From: Porpolomopsis calyptriformis
Taxonomy: Eukaryota; Basidiomycota; Agaricomycetes; Agaricales; Hygrophoraceae
Assembly (NCBI GenBank): GCA_951640195.1
Contig: OX621163.1
Coordinates: forward strand, 620,001 to 684,000
Direction: 5' to 3'
DNA length: 64,000 nt
In this document: positions 18,940 through 55,421 of the stretch, one piece after another
Position numbering within the stretch: the stretch's first letter is position 1
Layout of the letters: every line of letters begins with the position of its first letter
Notes under the pieces: generated by a model
Seen by the model: the letters and a program-made list of their open reading frames with translations, nothing else
Databases searched by the model: none
Told to the model about the DNA's origin: nothing
Made by a program: the position numbers and the translations under genes

Positions 18940-19339
18940 CTAGTCCATCTTGGCAATCTCTTGCACCATACTGTCCCTCAAGAACTCTATGAAACTCGAG
19001 ACTACTTGACCATCTAATGCGGCCAACTTATTACCCCAGTAAATTGCCCCATTGGTGTCACCTCCAGAGGCCTGCAACTCAGCAGCCTTCCCTTCGACGA
19101 AACCCATCGCTATCTTTCTCACTTCCTCACCCAACCAATCATTAGTGGGACTCCACAACAAACTGGGAGGAACTTCTTCCTCCTCGATCTTGACGTTGAC
19201 GTTAGTCAACGACAACGACGAATCTTTGACTAAAAAAGGCAAAGAAATCAGCAACTATGAAGAGAGCGAGAGTGTTGAGAGCATTACCACTAGACAAAAC
19301 ACTCAATGGACCAGGGGTCCAAGGACGGAAAGGGGGACT
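18940..19339 (-). pseudogene. LTR-F gene fragment, left arm of copy c
   Basis: Minus strand: exon 3 (19229-18940, 290 nt, full length ending QEIAKMD) and the last part of exon 2 up to the palindrome junction at 19339. No exon 1 or promoter remains. Confidence 0.8.
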
Positions 19340-20043
19340 CCTCTGTTGGTCTTCCTTCTCCTGCTTCGCTTGCGGTGGCAAGCACAAAGTCAAGAAGTGT
19401 CCGTTTGTTCGCTGGCCAATCCAGCATGCTTGCGGCTTGATGGAGGATCCGCTTGGTGAGTATTTTGTTTTGTCTTTATTAGTCTGTGTTTGTTGATAAT
19501 AGGCTTTCCCTTTCTTAGCTTGGGATGATGACGCCCCTCCCCCTACTTCCCAGCTCCCTTTGGAGGAGCAGGTTAATTGGGGGTCCGACAAGTGGGCTGA
19601 CTCTCTTCCTTCTGTCAAGAAGGAGGCAGTTGACTGGGCTGTCAGTCCCCCTTTCTGTCCTTGGACCCCTAGTCCATTGAGTGTTTTGTCTAGTGGTAAT
19701 GCTCTCAACACTCTCGCTCTCTTCGTAGTTGCTGATTTCTTTGCCTTTTTTAGTCGAAGATTTGTCATTGTCATTGACTAATGTCAATGTCAAGATCGAG
19801 GAGGAAGAAGTTCCTCCCAGTTTGTTGTGGAGTCCCACTAATGATTGGTTGGGTGAGGAAGTGAGAAAGATAGTGATGGGTTTCATCGAAGGGAAGGCTG
19901 CCGAGTTGCAGGCCTCCGGAGGTGACACCAATGGGGCAATTTACTGGGGTAATAAGTTGGCCGCATTAGATGGTCAAGTAGTCTCGAGTTTCATAGAGTT
20001 CTTGAGGGACAGTATGGTGCAAGAGATTGCCAAGATGGACTAG
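19340..20043 (+). pseudogene. LTR-F gene fragment, right arm of copy c
   Basis: Plus strand: end of exon 1 (19340-19455, including CFACGGKHKVKKC), exon 2 (19519-19695) and exon 3 (19754-20043). Splice sites are intact and the frame open, but start codon and TATA box were lost at the junction. Confidence 0.8.
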
Positions 20044-43648: not shown

Positions 43649-45353
43649 TGTCACAACTGTAGTTGCAAGTCTTTTCGTCAATCACAAGGCAGGCCTTAGA
43701 GCTTAATAAGTCTAGTAGGATGTAGAAGAAAGTCCTGATGGGGACGTCCTCGTAAAGGGTGATGATTCCTTCTGAGTTAAGTTTTACTTCTACAAAGAAG
43801 TTGTTCTGCGAGTTAAATCCGTTGCGTGCCTCTGCTGAGAGTTTAGGGAATATGGGCATGAACGATTGGCTCAGTAGTTATGGGTTTATGTTTCTCTTTT
43901 CTTGTTCTGATGGAAAAGAAGTCTGATGATTCTGATTGCGTTCGTGCTACTACAAGTAATCTCACAGGAGGACGAAGTGATGATCTGCTTCGCCCTCAGG
44001 GTTTATATAGTATTTCTAAAATAGGAGTCATTATGAGTCAGCCTCCGCAGTCACCCCATTTCCTAGTGTTCACAGCCTTCAGTTAAGGTTTGCCATTGTT
44101 CCTAGTCATTCTGCAAAAGGCTGTGTGCTTCTGATGACTCAATTCTATTGGGCATAGCCTTCCGCAGAATGAGGCTGTGTTATCTCATGACTGGTTTCTA
44201 TTGTTCTTCTGGTCATGAGATCGCCGTTGTTTCTATCTCTTGCCCAGCGTATCGGGTTTCTCTTCTTTGACTGAGGAACCTCCTTTTGGTCTTCCCTTTG
44301 TTTCTGAGCATATAAAAGGTGTGGGGTTGTATCCCTACGCTTCAGTTCAATCCTTGTCAATCATCATGACTCCTTCCCACCAAGGCCACTATGTCCGATT
44401 CTTCAAGCAGTCTGGAGTGGTGCACTGCACTGCTCCTGTCTTTCTCGATTGCGATTCGTTTCACTACTACCTCCAGTGCATCCCCTCCGACGCCGACCTC
44501 TGTTGGTCTTCCTTCTCCTGCTTCGCTTGCGGTGGCAAGCACAAAGTCAAGAAGTGTCCATTCGTTCGCTGGCCAATCCAGCATGCTTGCGGGTTGATGG
44601 AGGATCCGCTTGGTGAGTATTTTGTTTTGTCTTTATTAGTCTGTGTTTGTTGATAATAGGCTTTCCCTTTCTTAGCTTGGGATGATGATGCCCCTCCCCC
44701 TACTTCCCAGCTCCCTTTGGAGGAGCAGGTTAATTGGGGGTCTGACAAGTGGGCTGATTCCCTCCCTTCTGTCAAGAAGGAGGCAGTCGACTGGGCTACC
44801 AGTCCCCCCTTCCGTCCTTGGACCCCTGGTCCATTGAGTTCTTTACCTAGTGGTAAGCTCTCAATTCTCTCGCTCTCTTCGTGATTGTTGACCCTTTATT
44901 CTTAGTGGAAGATTTGTCGTCGTCGTTGACTAACGTCAACGTTAAGATTGAGGAGGAAGAAGTTCCTCCTAGTTTGTTATGGAGTCCCACCAACGATTGG
45001 TTGGGTGAGGAAGCGAGAAAGATAGCAATGAGTTTCATCAAGGGGAAGGCTGCCGAGTTGCAGGCCTCCGGTGGTGACACTAATGGGGCAATCTACTGGG
45101 GTAATAAATTGGCCGCTTTAGATGGTCAAGTAGTTTCTAGTTTCATAGAGTTTTTGAGAGATAGTATGGTGTAGGAGATTGCCAAGACAGACTAGTATAA
45201 ATAGTTAGTCGGACATGGACTCCTCCTTTTGTACAAGTAGTTTCCGCTGCCAACAAAGACAGCCCCTCTTCCAAAGAGAAAAGGCATAGAAAAGAAAGGA
45301 AAGAACAAAGAAAAAAGAGGAATTTTAAGAGAGTGAACGCCAATTTCATGACA
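43649..45353 (-). mobile_element. Solo LTR-F copy e
   Basis: 1705 bp, TGTCACAACTG..TTTCATGACA, perfect duplication CAATC at 43644-43648 and 45354-45358. Inserted in GyD gag, in the same orientation as the neighbouring complete GyF. Confidence 0.95.
44366..45174 (+). CDS. LTR-borne zinc-knuckle-like protein, copy e
   Basis: Exons 44366-44612, 44676-44852, 44906-45174; 693 nt, 230 residues. TATAAAA at 44311-44317. Introns GTGAGT..TTAG and GTAAGC..TTAG. Identical layout to copies f and g. A CAG-to-TAG change ends it seven residues early (DSMV instead of DSMVQEIAKMD). CFACGGKHKVKKC present. All else open. Confidence 0.78.
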
Positions 45354-45602
45354 CAATCTCTTCTCATGCACGTTGCTCCGAGGCAGTGTCCTTGAAACTT
45401 CTGTCAAGACCAAGCTTGAAGTTCGCCCAAGAAGGAAAGGGAATAGCATTGCCTTGAGTATCAGTCTGGTTGAGGAAATCATTGATGCACTGTTAGGCCC
45501 AGATGGCGGCGGTTCCTTCCTTCATATAGGAAAGGGTGATGAGGGCACATTCCGTGGCATCAGTAACACCTTGGCCAGCCAAGAATATGATAACCTGGCG
45601 GT
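45354..45602 (-). pseudogene. gag: GyD gag, middle block
   Basis: Minus: RQVIIFLAGQGVTDATECAL, TLSYMKEGTAAIWA, then INDFLNQTDTQGNAIPFPSW to the CAATC junction. Matches the capsid region of GyC (TLSYMKEGTAATWAQ). Bounded left by solo LTR e and right by GyF. Confidence 0.85.
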
Positions 45603-47310
45603 TGTCACAACTGTAGTTGCAAGTCTTTTCGTTAATCACAAGGCAGGCCTTGGAGCTCAATAAGTCTAGTAGGATGTAGAAGAAGGTTCTGACAGGGACG
45701 TCTTCGTATAGAGTGACGATTCCTTCTGAATTAAGTTTTACTTCTACAAAGAAGTTGTTCTGCGGGTTGAATCCATTGCGTGCCTCTGCTGAGAGTTTAG
45801 GGAATATGGGCATGAACAGTTGGCTCAGTAGTTGTGTTTTGTGTTTCTCTTTTCTTGTTCTGATGGAAAAGAAGTCTGATGATTCTGATTGCGTTCGTGC
45901 TACTACAAGTAATCTCACAGGAGGACGAAGTGATGATCCGCTTCGCCCTCAGGGTTTATATAGTATTTCTAAAATAGGAGTCACTATGAGTCAGCTTCCG
46001 CAGTCACCCCATTTTCTATTGTTCACAGCCTCCTGTTTAAGGTTTGCTATTGTTCTTAGTCATACTGTGGAAGGCTGTGTTGTTTTGATGACTCAACTCT
46101 ATTGGGCATAGCCTTCCGCAGTATCAGGCTGTGCTGTCTCATGACTGGTTCCTATTGTTCTTCTAGTCATGAGATTGCCATTGTTTCTATGTCTTGTCCG
46201 GCGTATTGGGTTTCTCTTCTTTGACTGAGGAACCTCCTTTTGGTCTTCCCTTTGTGTCTGAGCATATAAAAGGTGTGGGGTTGTATCCCTACGCTTCAGT
46301 TCAATCCTTATCAATTCATCATGACTCCCTCCTACCAAGGCCACTACGTCCGATTCTTCAAGCAGTCTGGAGTGGTGCACCGCACTGCTCCTGTCTTTCT
46401 TGATTGCGATTCGTTTCATTACTACCTTCAGCACATCCCTTCCAACGCCGACCTCTGCTGGTCTTCCTTCTCTTGTTTTACTTGCGGTGGCAAGCATAAG
46501 GTCAGAAAGTGTCTGTATGTTCGCTGGCCAATCCAGCATGTTTGTGGCTTGATGGAGGATCCGCTTGGTATGTATCTTGTTTTGTCTTTATTAGTCTGTG
46601 TTTATTGATAATAGGCTTTCCCTTTTTAGCTTGGGATGATGACACCCCTCCTCCCACCTCCAAGCTCCCTTTGGAGGAGCAAGTTGATTGGAGTTCCGAC
46701 TGTTGGGGGTATCCCCTCCCCTTTGATGATGCTAAGCCTGAGGACTTGGCTACCAGCCCCCCTTTCTGTCCTTGGACCCCTGGTCCAACAAGTGTTTTGT
46801 CTAGTGGTAAGCCTTTAACTCTCTCGCTCTCTTCATAGTTGCTGATTCCCTGTCTTTTTTAGTCGAAGATTTGTCGTCGTCGTTGACAAACATCAACGTC
46901 AAGATCGAGGAGGAAGAAGTTCCTCCCAGTTTGTTATGGAGTCCCACCAACGATTGGTTGGGTGAGGAAGCGAGAAAGATAGCGATGAGTTTCATTGAAG
47001 GGAAGGCTGCCGAGTTGCAGGCCTCCAGTGGTGACACCAATGGGGCAATCTACTGGGGTAATAAGTTGGCCACAATAGATGGTCAAGTAGTGTCGAGTTT
47101 TGTAGAGTTCTTGAGGGACAGTATGGTGCAGGAGATTGCCAAGATGGACTAGTATAATTAGCTAGTCGGACATGGATTCCTCCTTTCGTACAAGTAGTTT
47201 CCGCTGCCAATAAAGACAGCCTCCCTTCCAAAAGAATTGGTATAAGAAAGAAAAGAAAAGAATGAAGAAAAGAGAGGAATTTTAAGAGAGTGAATGCCAA
47301 TTTCATGACA
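45603..47310 (-). repeat. GyF 3' LTR (LTR-F copy f)
   Basis: TGTCACAACTG..TTTCATGACA in plus reading. In minus orientation: U3 47310-45933, R-U5 45932-45603. Retroelement TATATAAA complement near 45956-45963, transcript start CACTTCGTCCT (complement of 45922-45932, CpGs intact here). Contains gene copy f. Confidence 0.96.
46321..47152 (+). CDS. LTR-borne zinc-knuckle-like protein, copy f (full form)
   Basis: Exons 46321-46567, 46630-46806, 46863-47152; 714 nt, 237 residues, uninterrupted. TATAAAA at 46265-46271, ATG 50 bp downstream is the first one. Introns of 62 and 56 nt, GTATGT..TTAG and GTAAGC..TTAG. Residues 1-82: basic/aromatic region ending in CFTCGGKHKVRKC (CX2CX3HX4C). Exon 2: proline- and tryptophan-rich (PFCPWTPGPT). 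Exon 3: acidic KIEEEEVPPSLLWSP, then a helical stretch to QEIAKMD. No homologue recognised. It lies in U3, antisense to gag-pol. Confidence 0.8.
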
Positions 47311-50300
47311 TTACCCCCTCCCTAGAGTCCACCGGAGCTATGCGAGGATGGACCCAAAGCTCTTCTCCTCTCAAATCTGAAGTCGGGATGCTTGTCATGA
47401 AATTCCGAGACCTTTTCCGCCGCATTTTCCAGATTTTTTCCGGGTTCCCAGGAGTTTTCCGAAATAGAGTACCCCTTCCACTGTACCAAATATTGTTTTT
47501 GGTTTCGCCAGAGCCTTCCATCCAGGATTTGGTCAACCTCGTACTCTTCCTCCCCTTCTATTTCTATTCCCTCCAGTTCTTCCAATCTTCTCCCTTTTAT
47601 CTCTGAGTCCTCATAAGTGCTGAGCAAATTTCCATGAAAGATTGGATGTATTCGGTACGTCCCTGGTAATTTCAATTTGTAGACTTGGTCTGAGAGTTTC
47701 CTTTCTATTTCAAAGGGTCCCAATCTCTTATCTGCCAGTTTTTTACTAGGGGCGGTAGTGCTGATGTTTGTTGTATCCAGCCAGACTTTATCTCCAACCT
47801 CCCTATGTACTTCTTCCGTTTTCTTATCGTAATAGTCTTTCATTGTATTCTGGGCTAGCCTGATTGATGCCTTGATTTCTTCTTGAACTCTTTTTATCTC
47901 TTCGGTCAGATCTTAGGCTCTCAGTACTTCAGACTTTCCAGCCTGAGGGATCGCCATCTTTGGATGATATCCCCTTGTAGCATAGAATGGAGTCCTTTTC
48001 GTGGATGAATTTTCATTGTTATTGTGGGCAAATTCTGCCATTGGTAAGAACTTGGCCCAGTCATTTTGTCGATAATTACAAAATGTTCTGAGGTATTGCT
48101 CTAATTCTTGGTTAATGCGTTCAGTTTGTCCGTCGGTTTGAGGGTGATATGCTGTTGAATAGGCCCCTTCAATCCCTAGTTTCTTGAAAATTCCCCTCAT
48201 TAGTTTTGATGTGAATTGCGTTCCGCGGTCTGAAATCATCTTCTCCAGGACCCCATGTAGCCTCCAAATATGATTCATATATAGCTTTACTGTCTCCTCT
48301 GTGTCCACCTCAATAGTCGTTGGTATAAAATGAGCTTCTTTTGTTAACTGATCCACCACAACCCAGATGGCGTCGTAACCTTCTGATTTGGGTAGTTCCA
48401 TAATGAAGTCATTTGTTACCATCTCCCATGGTCTTTCTGAAGGCAGTATTGGTATCAACCTTCCTTTGGCTCTGTGATAGGATCTTTTCTTTCGATTACA
48501 GGTGTCACAGGTTTTCACATAATGTTTGACATAAGTCGTGATTCCTGGCCACCAGTAATTTCAGGTGAGTAGTTCCAGCATTCAGTATTCTGCTTGATGC
48601 CCTCCTTCCAAGGTATCATAATGCAGATGTACTAAATCCCTCCTTATTTCCTCATCTTTTGGGACATAGACTTTTCCTTTGAAAAGAATTAGACCATTCT
48701 CGGTGTTCTAGTCTTCCAATCCTTTTCTGAGTTTTCTAGGCACCCCTCCTTTGACTATTTTCAAGGCTTCTTCGATTTCAGAGTCGAAAGCTTCAGAGGC
48801 TCGAATTCTTTGTAGTATAGGGTGATCTTTGACTATTGTCATATGTCCTCGAAACAGAGCTTTTATTTTGAAAACTTCTGGCTTCAATAGAATCTGTCCC
48901 TGGTTTTCTTCTCCTTCTATCTGGTAATCTGCTCATCTTGACAATTTATCTGGTTTTCCACCTAGTCTTCCAGGTCGATGTTTGATTATATAATCAAATC
49001 TTGTTAGGAATAAGCTCCATCTTGCTTGTCGTCTGGTCAGGGTTTTTGCTGAGGCAAAATACTGCAGATTTTGGTGATCTGATAAGATAGTTACTTGATG
49101 TTTCGCCCCTTCCAGATAATGTCTCCATTCTTCAAGTGACGCTATTATGGCCAACAGTTCTTTGTCATAAATTTCATAATTCCTTTCCGCGTCATTCATT
49201 CCTCTTGAATAAAAGGCTATTGGATGTATCTTTCCATCTCTTCCATATTGTGAGATAATAGATCCAATGGCGAAATCTGAGGCATCGCATTCTAGGATGT
49301 ATGGCTCTTCTGGGTTCGCCATTGCCAAAATTGGTGCTGTGGTGAATTTCCTTTTAAGGATTTGAAATGCTTGTTCCTGTCTCTCCCCCCATTCCCATTT
49401 CTTCCCTTTTCTTAACAGTTCCGTGATTAGTCTCACTGTTTTGGAAAATTCAGGAATGAAGCATCTATAGAAGTTTGCAAAGCCTAAAAAGGATTGTACT
49501 TCTTTTACTTTTCGTGGTGTCGGCCAATCAATTACTGCTCTGACTTTTCCTGGATCCATCTCAATTTTCTCCTGGCTAATAAGGTGTCCTAGATATTCCA
49601 CAGAGTCTTTGAAAAAGTAACATTTTTCCGGTTTGAGAAAGAGATTGTTCTCTCTTAACCTTTTGAGTATTTCTTGAATATGTCCTAGTTGTTCCTTCTC
49701 ATCTTTTGAATATATGAGGATGTCGTCAATGTATATTTCAACATATTTTCCAATTAGATCACGGAAAATAGTATTCATCATTCGCTGAAAGGTTGCTGGG
49801 GCATTTGTTAACCTGAACCACATTACTTGTGGTTCAAAGAGTCCTTCTTTTGTATTAAAGGCAGCTTTCCATTTGTCCCCTTCCTTGATCCGAATATTGT
49901 TATATCCCCATCGCACGTCCAATGTGGTAAAGACTTTTGCGCTAGCCAGGTTATCGAGTAGTCTCTGTGTCAATGGTAGAGGGTATCGATCTTTCACAGT
50001 TGCATTGTTTAATCCCTGATAATCCACTATGAGTCTTAGTTTCCCATCCTTTTTCTTGATAAAGAAGACTGGTGAAGCAGCTCGAGATTCTGATTCAACT
50101 ATGTACCCCTTCTTTAGGTTTTCAGCAATGAATTCTTTCAGTGCTTCAGCCTCAATTGGTGCCATTGCATAGGGTTTTTTATTGGGTAGCGGTTTTTCGG
50201 GTATAAGGTTGATCGGGTGATCATACATTTTTCTAAGTGGTAGTCTTTCCAATGCCTTTTTATCAAAGACGTCCCTATAGTCATGTAGAGACTTTGGCAC

Positions 50301-51000
50301 CAGTTCTTCAAAGGTTTTTGCCCCTTCTTTGATGGTGGTCGGTTCTGCTACCTTCTGAGATATAGTGAAACCTGCTGCTATTCGTTTGTCTAGTCCTTTC
50401 TTCGGAATCAAGATCTGGTCGCCTTTTTCGGGTTGATATTCTCCTAGCACATTCCATTCTCATATCCAGGTATTGTCTAGATCTGGACTCCAATATTCCA
50501 TTTCTGTTTCTTCCATTCTAATTTTCTGGATCTTCATTTTCTTGCAGTTCCTTCCTTTCTTGGTTTGACAAAACTTTGGGCACCAGCTAAAGGCAATTTT
50601 CTCTGTTTCCCAATTGATTTCTGGGTTGTGTCGCTTTAACCAGTCTATTCCAATGATTAAGTCATCTTCTCCTATTCCTGCTATAAGGAAATCTTCTTTC
50701 ATTTTATGTCCTCCTAAGTCTAGGTTAAGTTGAACCTTCTGAGTGATTTTTCCCATTCGATTCATTGTTTGGTCAACGTTTGTAATTTTGATGGGTTTTT
50801 TTAGTGGTGTAGTTTTCAGTTTCTGATTTCTTACCACCTTTGGTGAGATGAAGAGTGAGGATGCTCTGCAATCAATAAGGGCTTTGGTCGTCCATTCATT
50901 CTTTCCTTCATGAAGGTTCACTTGAGTATAAATCTGTCCTTCATTAGGGTTGGCGCTAATGTACATAGTCGAATCTTTGTCCTTTAAGTCCTTATTTGGT
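47311..51000 (-). pseudogene. pol: GyF pol (protease to chromodomain)
   Basis: Minus: protease site reads KALIDCRASSLFISP near 50880, so the expected glycine is arginine; TGA near 50460; RT LRLIVDYQGLNN near 50030, EIYIDDILIYSKDE near 49730; RNase H ILECDASDFAIGSI near 49290; TGA near 48931; degenerate zinc region with TAG/TGA stops (48540-48720); CDTCNRKKRSYHRAK near 48510; integrase core ISDRGTQFTSKLMRG near 48220, HPQTDGQTERINQELEQYL near 48140; chromodomain QILDGRLWRNQKQYLVQWKG near 47530 and SENSWEPGKNL. Full order, few lesions. Confidence 0.92.
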
Positions 51001-51028
51001 CGGGCTAAAGAAAATGCAGAGTCTTTCT

Positions 51029-52468
51029 TCAGCCTTGAGCAAAATCCTCCTCTCCCTCTTCTTTTTCTTCTTCATCAACTTTCTTGGCTTGAATATTCCC
51101 AAATTTCTTTCTAGGGCAAGCTCTGGCTATATGACCTACTTGTCTACAGAAGAAGCATTGCCCTTCTTTCATCAGGCTTTTTCGTTCTTCCTCTGTTAGT
51201 TGAGCGACTTTGATGGCTACAGGTTTTCGGTAGCCTCTGCTGGGCTCGATTCTTCTTTTTTCTTTGGCCCTTATTAAGATTCTTCCTTCAATGGTTAAGG
51301 CCACTTGCAATAATTCTTGCAAGGTTCCAGGCCTCTCAACGGTAACCATGATATCTTTGATCTGATCTTTGAATCCTTGGTAAAATATCTCAGTGAGGGT
51401 CTCTTCTCCATAATTGCATTGGAGCGCCTTTTCGAGGAATTTAGCATAATAATCTGTGATCGATTTTTCCTGTTTAATGGTCCTTAGGGCTTCTCGTGCA
51501 TCTTGCACTTCATTAATTGGTCCATATAGAATGGTTCCTCATTCCAACAATAGTCTCCAATCTCTCAGCATCAGAGATTTATGTGGAAGATCTCTTGTAC
51601 TCAATATTGCATCAGCCTACAGCCTTGCAAGTCCAGTAAACCAGTTTAGTAAGTAAAGACATCGGTTTCTGGAATTAGTTGTCTCATTGAAGAAGTCAGG
51701 GAAATGGAGGAAATAGTGGTAGGCTTGGATGAGGAATGTTCTCCACTTGTTCCTGTCTCCATCGAAATGGTCCGGCTCTGTTGGCTTGGGAATCCTTATA
51801 TTTGGGACTCCCCCTCCAGCTGGTCCTGGTCCTGGTCCTGGTCCTGGTCCTGGGGGTGGTCCTCCTGGGGGTGGTCCTAGAGGCAGTCCTCCAGGTGGCC
51901 CTCCAGGTCCAGCGGGTTGCCCACCTCCTCCTATTGATCCTCCAGGTGGTGGTGCAAATGGATTTAATATCGGAGTCTTCTTGGGACTTCCTTCAGGTGG
52001 CTTCTCTCTTCCTTTCCCTTTTGGTTCCTTGGTCGGTGTTTCCATTCCTGAGTGAGCAATCGGAATCTTTGGTCCCCATCCAGTGAGCCCTGTTTTCTCT
52101 ATTGGTTTCGTGGGTACTGGGTCTAGTAATCCAGTTCGACTTGAGTAAGTCGTGCTTTCCCTTCCTATTCCCCTTCCTCTGCTACTTAATGCTCTGCTCG
52201 CTTCAGGTTCTCCTCCTGCCTTCCTTTTCAATTTCCTTCCTAACATGGTGAAGAGTCCTTTCTCCTTTTCAGTTTCGTTATCCCCTTCATCTTCGGGTTC
52301 ATCTGCTGTTCTAGAGAAACTGGTGGTGGACCCCCAGAATGCTCCTTCAGGTGTCTCTTTTTGGGGTTCACTCTTGGAGCTTGCAGGAGTCTCTGGGTCC
52401 TCTATTCCTACTTGGTAACTGAGCGCAGTTACAGTAGTATCTCTCGGATCCTGGTATGGTTGACTCAT
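51029..52468 (-). pseudogene. gag: GyF gag
   Basis: ATG 52468 (MSQPYQDPRDTTVTALSYQ). A GPGPGPGP tract is coded by TGGTCC repeats (51825-51860). Capsid-like PTEPDHFDGDRNKWRTFLIQ; TAG near 51617 and TGA near 51540; then DAREALRTIKQEKSITDYYA and knuckle CFFCRQVGHIARAC near 51140. Ends at TGA 51029; pol continues in -1. Confidence 0.88.
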
Positions 52469-52647
52469 AGTTAGGGTCTTCGTGTATATCTATTTGAATT
52501 CTGATTGGCTTATTCGCAAGCTTATGGTAGGCCAAATAGTTTATGCTTCCTTTAGCTGCTGAAAAGAATAATGTTTCTCATCTAAGGAGATGGTATTGTT
52601 TGTCATCCAATATTAAGCAGGATAACCAGTCTGCGGTGTGATTCCAA

Positions 52648-52658
52648 CACTTCGTCCT
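52648..52658 (-). promoter_or_regulatory. GyF self-priming primer-binding site
   Basis: Minus reading AGGACGAAGTG, two bases from the 5' LTR, is the complement of CACTTCGTCCT at the predicted transcript start in the LTR. The 3' LTR retains the perfect match (45922-45932); the 5' LTR has one CpG-to-TpG mismatch (52980-52990). Confidence 0.82.
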
Positions 52659-53044
52659 AATGTCACAACTGTAGTTGCAAGTCTTTTCATTAATCACAAG
52701 GCAGGCCTTGGAGCTCAATAAGTCTAGTAGGATGTAGAAGAAGGTTCTGACAGGGACGTCTTCGTATAGAGTGACGATTCCTTCTGAATTAAGTTTTACT
52801 TCTACAAAGAAGTTGTTCTGCGGGTTGAATCCGTTGCGTGCCTCTGCTGAGAGTTTAGGGAATATGGGCATGAACGGTTGGCTCAGTAGTTGTGTTTTGT
52901 GTTTCTCTTTTCTTGTTCTGATGGAAAAGAAGTCTGATGATTCTGATTGCGTTCGTGCTACTACAAGTAATCTCACAGGAGGATGAAGTGATGATCCGCT
53001 TCACCCTCAGGGTTTATATAGTATTTCTAAAATAGGAGTCACTA

Positions 53045-53182
53045 TGAGTCAGCTTCCGCAGTCACCCCATTTTCTATTGTTCACAGCCTCCTGTTTAAGG
53101 TTTGCCATTGTTCTTAGTCATACTGCGGAAGGCTGTGTTGTTTTGATGACTCAACTCTATTGGGCATAGCCTTCCGCAGTAT
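53045..53182. promoter_or_regulatory. U3 inverted repeat and TGASTCA sites between divergent promoters
   Basis: Arms ATACTGCGGAAGGCT (53120-53134) and AGCCTTCCGCAGTAT (53168-53182) form a perfect 15-bp inverted repeat. TGACTCA sits in the loop (53147-53153) and TGAGTCA at 53045-53051. ATTGTT motifs surround it. The arrangement recurs, with some mismatches, in copies a, e, f and h, so it is an ancestral part of U3 and a candidate shared control region. Confidence 0.6.
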
Positions 53183-53378
53183 CAGGCTGTGCTATCTCAT
53201 GACTGGTTCCTATTGTTCTTCTAGTCATGAGATCGCCGTTGTTTCTATGTCTTGTCCGGCGTATTGGGTTTCTCTTCTTTGACTGAGGAACCTCCTTTTG
53301 GTCTTCCCTTTGTGTCTGAGCATATAAAAGGTGTGGGGTTGTATCCCTATGCTTCAGTTCAATCCTTGTCAATTCATC

Positions 53379-54210
53379 ATGACTCCCTCCCACCAAGGCC
53401 ACTACGTCCGATTCTTCAAGCAGTCTGGAGTGGTGCACCGCACTGCTCCTGTCTTTCTCGATTGCGATTCGTTTCATTACTACCTTCAGCGCATCCCTTC
53501 CGATGCCGACCTCTGCTGGTCTTCCTTCTCTTGTTTTGCTTGTGGTGGCAAGCATAAGGTCAGCAAGTGTCCGTATGTTCGCTGGCCAATCCAGCATGTT
53601 TGTGGCTTGATGGAGGATCCGCTTGGTATGTATCTTGTTTTGTCTTTATTAGTCTGTGTTTATTGATAATAGGCTTTCCCTTTTTAGCTTGGGATGATGA
53701 CACCCCTCCTCCCACCTCCAAGCTCCCTTTGGAGGAGCGAGTTGATTGGAGTTCTGACCGTTGGGGGTATCCCCTCCCCTTTGATGATGCTAAGCCTGAG
53801 GACTTGGCTACCAGCCCCCCTTTCCGTCCTTGGACCCCTAGTCCAACAAGTGTTTTGTCTAGTGGTGAGCCTTTAACTCTCTCGCTCTCTTCATAGTTGC
53901 TGATTCCCTGTCTTTTTTAGTCAAAGATTTGTCGTCGTCGTTGACCAATGTCAACGTCAAGATCAAGGAGGAAGAAGTTCCTCCCAGTTTGTTATGGAGT
54001 CCCACCAACGATTGGTTGGGTGAGGAAGCGAGAAAGATAGCGATGAGTTTCATTGAAGGGAAGGCTGCCGAGTTACAGGCCTCCGGTGGTGACACCAATG
54101 GGGCAATCTACTGGGGTAATAAGTTGGCCGCAATAGATGGTCAAGTAGTGTCGAGTTTTGTAGAGTTCTTGAGGGACAGTATGGTGCAGGAGATTGCCAA
54201 GACGGACTAG
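53379..54210 (+). CDS. LTR-borne zinc-knuckle-like protein, copy g (full form)
   Basis: Exons 53379-53625, 53688-53864, 53921-54210; 714 nt, 237 residues, no stop. Same introns and TATA spacing as copy f. Knuckle-like CFACGGKHKVSKC. Differs from copy f mostly at CpG transitions. With copy f it shows that a transposing element carried two intact gene copies, one per LTR, transcribed away from the gag-pol promoter. Product and role unknown. Confidence 0.8.
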
Positions 54211-54368
54211 TATAATTAGCTAGTCGGACATGGATTCCTCCTTTCATACAAGTAGTTTCCGCTGCCAATAAAGACAGCCTCCCTTCCAAAAGAATTGGTA
54301 TAAGAAAGAAAAGAAAAGAACAAAGAAAAGAGAGGAATTTTAAGAGAGTGAACGCCAATTTCATGACA

Positions 54369-55421
54369 GCGGTACCAATCTCAGTAGGCTTTGGGGTCAC
54401 TATTAAAAGTGCTGGGTTTGGCAAGTTTGATTTTGCTTGCGACAGGAGTAGTCATAGGTGGAGCAGGTAGGGGATTATTTGGAGATGGAGGAGACAGTGT
54501 CGGGGGATTAGGATCTGGATTCGGGTTTGGATCTACATCAGGGAGGGGAGCAGGTGGCTCTCGAGGAGAAGGACTTGGTTTTCTTGAGGAGAGGGAAGAT
54601 AGGGCTGAAGGAGGTGGGTCTGAAGGTTCGGGTTCAGGTTCAAATTCCACGGAAGCGATCCGTTGCTTTCCCTTGGCAGTAGGTCGCGGGAAAGGTGATT
54701 CAACTGGTGGAGGAGGGGTTCATCAAGGTCTAAGACCTAGGAAAGAGAATGAGGTTGGAGCCCAGGATGGAAGGGTGGAGGACCTGGATTTGAGCGAAGA
54801 GATGGAAGGTAGAAGAGGAGGAAGGAGTTGTGACGAGAAGGGCGAGTGGATCTCAAGTTGATCCTCAGGCATGTCTTCATACTTGAGTTCCTCTTTGGGT
54901 TCCGAAGCGCTGTATGAGGGTCTTCACAATGGATGAGACGTGGTGGTTCAGTGATCGAGTATGAGATGGACTTCTCATACATCTTGAGTTCCACATTGTT
55001 GAAAGATGAAAATGATAGGGATGATAGCTTGTTCTGTGAGATGATGGGGATGGTGGATGTGAATGTGAACTTAGAGGTAGACGACTGGCTCTACTTCAAG
55101 GAGTGTTGCTGGGTCGGACGGGTCTTCAATCGGAGCGGATGGAGCAGTATCGAAAGATTCCTCAGATGAGGATAATGAAGGGGACAAAGGTGGGGATGGG
55201 GCAAGGTCAGGTTCAGAGAATTTGTCAGCCAATGGGTTGAGCTGTTCTGTTAAAGAATCGAGCTTGAGTGGCAACAAGTCTAATGTGGCAGTGGCAGTCA
55301 AACGTGTATTGCTAATGAGCTTAGACGTTGAGGCCTGATGGGGTTCGGGGTTAGTAAGGGCATAGGGCAGGGGCAGTGATGGAGAGCGCAAGGCCAGGGT
55401 GGTGGTCGAATTGAATACCAT
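54369..55421 (-). pseudogene. gag: GyD gag, N-terminal block
   Basis: Minus from ATG 55421 (MVFNSTTTLALRSPSL), a serine/proline-rich N-terminus with TGA/frame breaks around 54737-55071, then ALSSLSSRKPSPSPREPPAP and ASKIKLAKPSTFNSDPKAY before the GyF junction. The equivalent region of GyE is 61936-63130. Confidence 0.82.

What the first reader, a model, noticed from the sequence alone, without database searches (positions are those of the whole stretch)
45603..54368. A retrotransposon whose LTRs each carry an intron-containing gene antisense to gag-pol
Seen: 1708-bp LTRs flank gag-pol within one GCGGT duplication, and each LTR holds an uninterrupted 237-codon, three-exon gene on the strand opposite to gag-pol, with its own TATA box in U3. 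Because the gene is in the LTR, the element carries two copies, and each solo LTR leaves a stand-alone gene behind. Known: antisense ORFs exist in some plant Ty3 elements, usually internal. I know of no described spliced gene confined to the U3 of a fungal chromovirus, though I cannot search. Inference: the product may regulate element expression, particles or host silencing.
Basis: partly seen in the sequence, partly recalled or inferred. Interest (0 to 1): 0.88.

Follow-up and report, generated by a model that had tools for sequence, protein, structure and literature searches.

The report
Spliced antisense gene inside retrotransposon LTRs
A fungal jumping element carries, inside each of its two end repeats and pointing the opposite way to its replication genes, a small three-exon protein gene that selection has preserved, so stray end repeats scattered through the genome are also stray copies of that gene.

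Summary
45603-54368 is a Ty3/gypsy chromovirus with 1708-bp LTRs (97.7% identical) inside a GCGGT duplication. Each LTR holds a 237-codon, three-exon gene antisense to gag-pol, wholly in U3, with its own TATA box and poly(A) signal. Evolutionary tests say that it is a real protein gene. A degenerate exon-3 motif occurs 214 times in the genome (reversed control 0). In 75 distinct copies examined, both introns are GT-AG in 75 of 75; exon lengths are constant in 74, 74 and 69 of 75, while intron lengths vary. dN/dS against the window copy is 0.08-0.35. Variants shared by 8 or more of 58 rows include no stop codon (6.2 expected). Of 57 copies with both ends seen, 46 have a perfect 5-bp duplication with no internal region (solo LTRs). 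No relative of the product was found. Best reading: an element-encoded accessory protein, made from a divergent U3 promoter shared with gag-pol, that regulates the element or counters silencing; that function is inference. Antisense genes are known in LTR elements (Grande, RIRE2, Retand, fungal Boty; HTLV-1 HBZ), and MMTV has a U3 gene (sag). I found no described spliced antisense gene confined to U3. Expression could not be tested.

The parts
52661..54368 (-). 5' LTR of the element (sense strand minus), 1708 bp
   Evidence: 97.66% identical to the other LTR; TG..CA ends
45603..47310 (-). 3' LTR, 1708 bp
45598..45602 (.). target-site duplication GCGGT, left copy
   Evidence: read
54369..54373 (.). 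target-site duplication GCGGT, right copy
   Evidence: read
47322..52489 (-). gag-pol region (gag, CCHC knuckle, protease, RT, RNase H, integrase, chromodomain); frames interrupted in this copy
   Evidence: open frames; Pfam
53323..53328 (+). TATAAA upstream of the antisense gene
   Evidence: present in 63 of 63 aligned LTRs
53379..53625 (+). antisense gene in the 5' LTR, exon 1 (starts with ATG; CCHC-like cysteine/histidine cluster)
53626..53687 (+). intron 1 (GTATGT..TAG, 62 nt)
   Evidence: GT..AG in 75 of 75 copies, length 62-66
53688..53864 (+). exon 2 (acidic, proline-rich, variable)
   Evidence: 177 nt in 74 of 75 copies
53865..53920 (+). intron 2 (GTGAGC..TAG, 56 nt)
   Evidence: GT..AG in 75 of 75 copies, length 53-58
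53921..54210 (+). exon 3 with stop codon
   Evidence: 290 nt in 69 of 75 copies; lowest dN/dS with exon 1
54267..54272 (+). AATAAA, possible poly(A) signal of the antisense gene, inside the LTR
   Evidence: AATAAA in 53 of 63 aligned LTRs
46321..47152 (+). second copy of the gene, in the 3' LTR (exons 46321-46567, 46630-46806, 46863-47152)
   Evidence: exon coordinates by the 7058-bp LTR offset
53011..53021 (-). gag-pol TATA region (CTATATAAACC on the minus strand)
   Evidence: (TATATA in 62 of 63)
52980..52990 (-). 11-mer 31 nt after the TATA, complementary to the site just inside the LTR (10 of 11 here, 11 of 11 in the 3' LTR at 45932); marks the likely RNA start and U3/R boundary
52648..52658 (-). 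primer-binding site, apparently of the self-priming type
47311..47325 (-). purine-rich tract next to the 3' LTR
   Evidence: read; the same bases adjoin other element copies
43649..45353 (-). neighbouring solo LTR of the same family (TSD CAATC) with its own gene copy 44366-45195, which has a premature stop

Best explanation
A protein-coding accessory gene of the retrotransposon. It lies wholly in U3, reads antisense to gag-pol, has two small introns and is a complete transcription unit (TATA box, ATG, three exons, poly(A) signal) in every full LTR. One divergent U3 promoter (two TATA boxes about 300 bp apart) would drive gag-pol one way and this gene the other way. In reverse transcription U3 is copied from the parent's 3' LTR, so each new element gets two gene copies and each LTR-LTR recombination leaves a stand-alone copy. 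Antisense introns survive because the genomic RNA carries them as unsplicable complement. The product is most likely a nucleic-acid-binding or protein-binding regulator that helps its own element (expression, RNA fate or escape from silencing). Shown: structure, copy number, selection on the protein. Inferred: transcription, splicing, shared promoter control, function.
For: 75 distinct copies: both introns GT-AG in 75 of 75; exon lengths 247, 177, 290 nt in 74, 74, 69 of 75; introns vary 62-66 and 53-58 nt. Whole-CDS dN/dS against the window copy 0.08-0.35, exon 1 0.03-0.26, exon 3 0.04-0.25 (11 comparisons). Variants shared by 8 or more of 58 rows: N 44, S 68, stop 0 (6.2 expected), N:S 0.33 of neutral, p 1e-8. 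Inside one subfamily (39 rows) the ratio falls from 0.54 for private variants (6 stops, 3.2 expected) to 0.26 for those in 6 or more rows (0 stops, 2.3 expected): decay after insertion, selection in the transposing lineages. Right frame 0.34 against 1.54 and 2.33 in the other two sense frames. Gene TATA 63 of 63, gag-pol TATA 62 of 63, TGACTCA between them 59 of 63. Motif 214 places, reversed control 0. Of 77 exact LTR-promoter sites on contigs 1-5, 60 have the exact gene motif at the expected distance.
Against: No RNA evidence. No homologue, Pfam domain or confident fold, so the regulator role rests on analogy; the cysteine/histidine cluster (CX2CX3HX4C) is one residue shorter than a zinc knuckle and no Pfam knuckle model matches. 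Raw DNA identity of the exons is no higher than of non-coding LTR (mean p-distance 0.072-0.136 against 0.061-0.160); the case rests on codons. 37 of 75 copies are not intact. In one search (67 rows) the class shared by 4 or more rows held 3 stops; only the class of 8 or more held none. Private variants do not reach neutrality (0.33, 0.54). One antisense frame also scores 0.47, but it holds 8.1 stops per copy. Hundreds of copies could act in trans, which should weaken selection on any one copy.
Confidence: 0.6

Rival explanations
1. Copy-number brake: the product, supplied in trans by solo LTRs, restrains the element, in the manner of the Ty1 p22 restriction factor (recalled).
For: Solo LTRs greatly outnumber pol copies: 214 motif places against 15 places with pol at 90% or more; each solo LTR can keep a promoter and an intact gene.
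Against: A brake is hard to keep by selection in the transposing lineage, where the constraint is seen; no similarity to gag was looked for beyond Pfam.
Confidence: 0.15
2. Host-beneficial gene: a host gene captured by, or domesticated from, the LTR and kept by host selection.
For: A spliced gene with its own promoter looks like a host gene; origin unknown.
Against: The 150 scored exon-3 hits (of 279 candidates) are 88-100% identical to the query and the 150 scored exon-1 hits (of 270) are of like closeness, so no diverged host progenitor surfaced, though the lists are capped. Individual copies decay: 37 of 75 not intact.
Confidence: 0.1
3. Antisense RNA regulation alone (double-stranded RNA with the 3' end of the genomic RNA), with no protein role.
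For: The mRNA would be complementary to U3 in the genomic RNA; antisense LTR transcription is common in retroelements (PMC10186651 passages).
Against: Selection acts on codons in the spliced frame and on exon length, not on bases as such.
Confidence: 0.08
4. The selected frame is a sense-strand ORF and the antisense gene is its shadow.
For: A 162-codon sense-strand frame overlaps exon 1 (53157-53645).
Against: It is open and in frame in 8 of 63 LTRs, against 36 of 63 with an intact antisense gene; it does not cover exons 2 and 3.
Confidence: 0.01
5. Chance open frames in a recent burst of near-identical copies.
For: Many copies are 94-98% identical.
Against: Conserved at synonymous distances of about 0.3-0.8 from the window copy, intron-only length changes, frame controls.
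Confidence: 0.01

Closest known systems
Antisense additional ORFs between pol and 3' LTR (aORF-3R: maize Grande gene23, rice RIRE2, Silene Retand, Phaseolus PvRetro13; review PMC7264820)
   Same: Element-borne gene antisense to gag-pol in most copies of a family, own promoter in Grande, product without known relatives, role unknown
   Different: Those lie in the internal region, once per element, and are lost when a solo LTR forms; here the gene is in U3, twice per element, and persists in solo LTRs; two introns
Boty / BcGypsy1 of Botrytis cinerea with antisense gene brtn (Zhao et al. 2011; seen only as cited in PMC7264820 and PMC8365987)
   Same: A fungal Ty3/gypsy element with an extra antisense gene
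   Different: [quoted passage not shown] sequence relation to this gene not tested
HTLV-1 HBZ and HIV-1 asp (review PMC10186651, passages)
   Same: Antisense gene driven from an LTR; HBZ has a spliced form
   Different: Their coding parts lie mainly outside the LTR (recalled); no sequence relation found or sought beyond Pfam
MMTV sag (PMC9412291, passages)
   Same: A protein gene inside U3, hence in both LTRs
   Different: Sense orientation (recalled), vertebrate retrovirus, superantigen
Tf1/sushi-type chromoviruses (recalled)
   Same: RT, integrase and chromodomain; an 11-nt match between RNA start and primer site as in Tf1 self-priming
   Different: Tf1 has short LTRs and no such gene (recalled)

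Membership tests
Ty3/gypsy chromovirus | gag, protease, RT-RNase H, integrase and chromodomain between LTRs | tested here: met
   Pfam matches over cut-off incl. RVT_1, RT_RNaseH, rve, Chromo
Ty3/gypsy chromovirus | TG..CA LTRs and 5-bp target duplication | tested here: met
   GCGGT here; 46 of 57 copies with both ends seen have a perfect 5-bp duplication
Tf1-type self-priming elements | RNA 5' end complementary to the primer-binding site | tested here: met
   11-mer 31 nt after the gag-pol TATA: 11 of 11 in the 3' LTR, 10 of 11 in the 5' LTR; RNA start not mapped
Antisense aORF-3R of LTR retrotransposons | Extra ORF antisense to gag-pol, present in most copies | tested here: met
Antisense aORF-3R of LTR retrotransposons | Lies between pol and the 3' LTR | tested here: not met
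   The gene is inside the LTR at both ends
HBZ-type antisense retroviral genes | bZIP coding region outside the LTR, transcript from the 3' LTR | tested here: not met
   No Pfam match; whole gene inside U3. HBZ features partly recalled
U3 genes of the MMTV sag kind | Coding region in U3 | tested here: met
U3 genes of the MMTV sag kind | Sense orientation | tested here: not met
   Opposite strand to gag-pol; sag orientation recalled
Expressed spliced gene | Spliced antisense RNA and protein | not testable with these tools
   No transcript or protein data available

The most novel reading that the evidence does not exclude
A retrotransposon has turned its LTR into a mobile, self-contained, intron-bearing gene. 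U3 is both promoter and gene, so every integration sows two working copies and every LTR recombination leaves one. The genome holds a dispersed family of more than 200 copies of a selfish regulator, expressed from the same divergent promoter that fires gag-pol, whose two-class, recombining exon 2 reflects diversification against a host or rival target.
Probability: 0.35. Interest if true: 0.82.

Novelty: new variant of a known kind. Interest (0 to 1): 0.66.

Why it matters
Antisense genes of LTR retrotransposons have been puzzling for decades because they are internal and without known function. Here the gene sits in U3, so it outlives its element: solo LTRs, usually thought of as dead promoters, are complete gene copies. 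Hundreds of independent copies with dated insertions allow constraint during transposition to be separated from neutral decay. It also bears on annotation, since such copies would probably be called host genes, and it makes the role of an antisense accessory gene testable in a fungus.

Tried and rejected
Homologues of the product: whole 237 aa, 291 candidates, none at E 10 or better; exon 2+3 alignment of 7 sequences, 1703 candidates, none; exon 3 in viral contigs, 3 pattern matches, none confirmed; Pfam none at E 5; PDB sequences two hits at E 0.49, taken as chance. Control: the element's RT in the same protein database gave 6656 hits, among them named mushroom-forming fungi, best 63% identity among the 120 listed, so the clade is covered though the species is not. 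The database finds only relatives that share short exact words.

Structure: exon 3 pLDDT 49.4, exon 1 62.5, from 6 and 5 window sequences; Foldseek of exon 1 gave nothing at E 0.001 or better, highest probability 0.33 in the 50 rows shown. Not used. The spliced protein was not sent, since the tool takes letter-for-letter frames only.

A second host element for the gene: an RT 51% identical lies between two gene hits on contig 5; it proved to be another element nested inside exon 2 of a solo LTR. Rejected.

First neutral spectrum was distorted by rows with unrelated flanks; redone after dropping 3 of 66 full-LTR rows (Wm50506, L049p2005, L051p1052). mis-aligned minus-strand loci; redone. Two duplicate rows (L044p3714, L049m3710) were dropped before the count of 75; they were still among the 77.

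Not reached: copies beyond the 150 scored per protein search, other fungal genomes, any transcript.
Full report
What is there. The window lies in a 33.5-Mb genome of 17 contigs. The element at 45603-54368 has two 1708-bp LTRs, 97.66% identical, in a GCGGT duplication. gag-pol is on the minus strand and ends in a chromodomain; several frame interruptions show that this copy is not intact. The RT is closest to proteins of mushroom-forming fungi among named hits (Psilocybe, Moniliophthora, Phlebia, Ganoderma and others), so I take the host as an agaricomycete; this is inference. The pol family is small: 15 places at 90% or more RT identity, the next family at 51% (85 of 1109 candidates scored).

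The gene. On the plus strand of each LTR a gene of 237 codons runs in three exons (53379-53625, 53688-53864, 53921-54210). Unspliced, frame 1 meets a stop in intron 1, so splicing is required. TATAAA precedes it and AATAAA follows it inside the LTR. On the other strand the gag-pol TATA starts at 53021. Thirty-one nucleotides on, an 11-mer matches the complement of the site 3 nt inside the LTR: 11 of 11 in the 3' LTR, 10 of 11 in the 5' LTR. This is the arrangement of Tf1 self-priming (recalled) and fixes the likely RNA start, and so the U3/R boundary, near 52990. The gene is therefore wholly in U3, divergent from gag-pol across about 300 bp.

How many. The pattern for a conserved exon-3 peptide matches 214 places, reversed control 0. 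An LTR promoter pattern with up to 3 mismatches matches 254 places, control 0. On contigs 1-5, 60 of 77 exact promoter sites have the exact gene motif 1083-1096 bp further on; the other 17 may be mutated, cut or split by insertions and were not looked at one by one.

What was compared. I examined 75 distinct gene copies: 7 in the window, 40 from the DNA-ranked LTR list, 20 from the upper part and 8 from the lower end of the exon-3 list. They are chosen by match score, not at random, so the intact share is probably an overestimate. Results: both introns GT-AG in 75 of 75; exon lengths unchanged in 74, 74 and 69; intron 1 62-66 nt, intron 2 53-58 nt; a YTRAY branch-like site in intron 1 in 75, CTRAY in intron 2 in 42. 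Donor hexamers vary among GTATGT, GTGAGT, GTAAGT and others while keeping GT. Of the 75, 38 are intact, 35 have a premature stop, 5 a frameshift, 4 lack the ATG (classes overlap). In 18 the LTR ends were not seen; of the other 57, 46 have a perfect 5-bp duplication (solo LTRs), 9 adjoin the internal region of an element, 2 have neither a perfect duplication nor an internal region.

Selection. Pairwise dN/dS against the window copy is 0.08-0.35 for the CDS in 11 comparisons: exon 1 0.03-0.26, exon 2 0.23-0.59, exon 3 0.04-0.25. With a neutral N:S expectation from the substitution spectrum of the non-coding LTR (58 rows), variants in 8 or more rows show N 44, S 68, stop 0 (6.2 expected), ratio 0.33, p 1e-8; exon 1 0.19, exon 3 0.14, exon 2 0.79 (p 0.52, not different from neutral). 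The private class there gives 0.33 with 8 stops (3.9 expected), but it includes lone members of old subfamilies, and the class of 2-3 rows gives 0.76. Inside one subfamily (39 rows) the ratios are 0.54, 0.72, 0.38 and 0.26 for variants in 1, 2, 3-5 and 6 or more rows, with stops 6, 4, 2 and 0. The two LTRs of this element, which diverged after insertion, differ in the gene by 16 N and 7 S, N:S 2.3, close to the neutral 1.9-2.8; a second element pair gives 13 N, 10 S and 3 stop changes. So the protein was constrained in the transposing lineages and decays once inserted.

Controls and results that cut the other way. In one search (67 rows) the right frame scores 0.34, the other sense frames 1.54 and 2.33, the antisense frames 1.44, 0.47 and 2.85; the 0.47 frame has 8.1 stops per copy and cannot be coding. 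In that call the class of 4 or more rows held 3 stops. A sense-strand frame over exon 1 is open in 8 of 63 LTRs against 36 of 63 for the gene. Non-coding LTR is about as similar between copies as the exons. The sliding comparison explains part of this: LTRs are mosaics. For example L059 differs from the window LTR by 1-5% in most flank windows (7-12% at the 3' end) but by 10-31% over exons 1-2.

Exon 2. It falls into two classes, 47 and 26 copies, with 2 others. Six copies of the second class have left flanks within 5% of the window LTR, so the exon-2 block has moved between subfamilies by recombination. Its relaxed or diversifying history is a lead, not proof of positive selection.

Mechanism. 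Shown: a conserved, spliced-looking protein gene with its own signals, fixed in the LTR of one family. From established knowledge of reverse transcription (recalled), both new LTRs take U3 from the parent's 3' LTR, so the gene copy that is inherited is the one downstream of pol, and the introns travel as unsplicable complement in the genomic RNA. Inferred: co-firing of gag-pol and the gene from one divergent promoter; a product that binds nucleic acid (the CX2CX3HX4C cluster in exon 1, seen by eye) and other proteins (helical exon 3, low-confidence model); benefit to the element. With more than 200 copies that could act in trans, selection on single copies is surprising; it suggests cis preference, silencing of most copies, or selection in genomes newly entered.

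Comparison. Antisense extra genes are established in plant LTR elements and in fungal Boty, between pol and the 3' LTR (PMC7264820, parts 1 and 2 of 3 read; Retand PMC11963269 passages; Boty brtn in PMC8365987 passages). LTR-driven antisense genes are known in HTLV-1 and HIV-1 (PMC10186651 passages), and MMTV U3 encodes Sag (PMC9412291 passages). I found no description of a spliced antisense gene confined to U3 in the answered searches of open-access papers; subscription papers were not covered. Hence a new variant of a known kind.

Noticed in passing
53688-53864 and homologues: Exon 2 occurs in two classes (47 and 26 of 75 copies, 2 others), and 6 copies of the second class sit in LTRs whose left flanks are within 5% of the window LTR: mosaic LTRs.
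   Followed up: partly
52980-52990, 45922-45932 with 52648-52658: An 11-mer at the likely RNA start is complementary to the primer site, suggesting Tf1-like self-priming.
   Followed up: partly
L078:1071-7547: A different gypsy element with 624-bp terminal repeats (97.9% identical) is nested inside exon 2 of a solo LTR of this family.
   Followed up: yes
L030 and L036: Two LTR copies on contigs 1 and 9 share the same flanking bases on the side shown, suggesting a duplicated segment rather than two insertions.
   Followed up: no
window 1-64000: Exons of this gene occur at about ten places in the window, some in inverted neighbouring LTR pieces (for example 18943-20040): a transposon-dense region.
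   Followed up: no
53122-53235: Inverted-repeat pairs and a TGACTCA site (59 of 63 LTRs) lie between the two TATA boxes; possible binding sites of a shared regulator.
   Followed up: partly
P0001: The best-scoring RT relative is filed under a frog genome (Lithobates pipiens) at 50% identity; it could be contamination or a real animal element.
   Followed up: no
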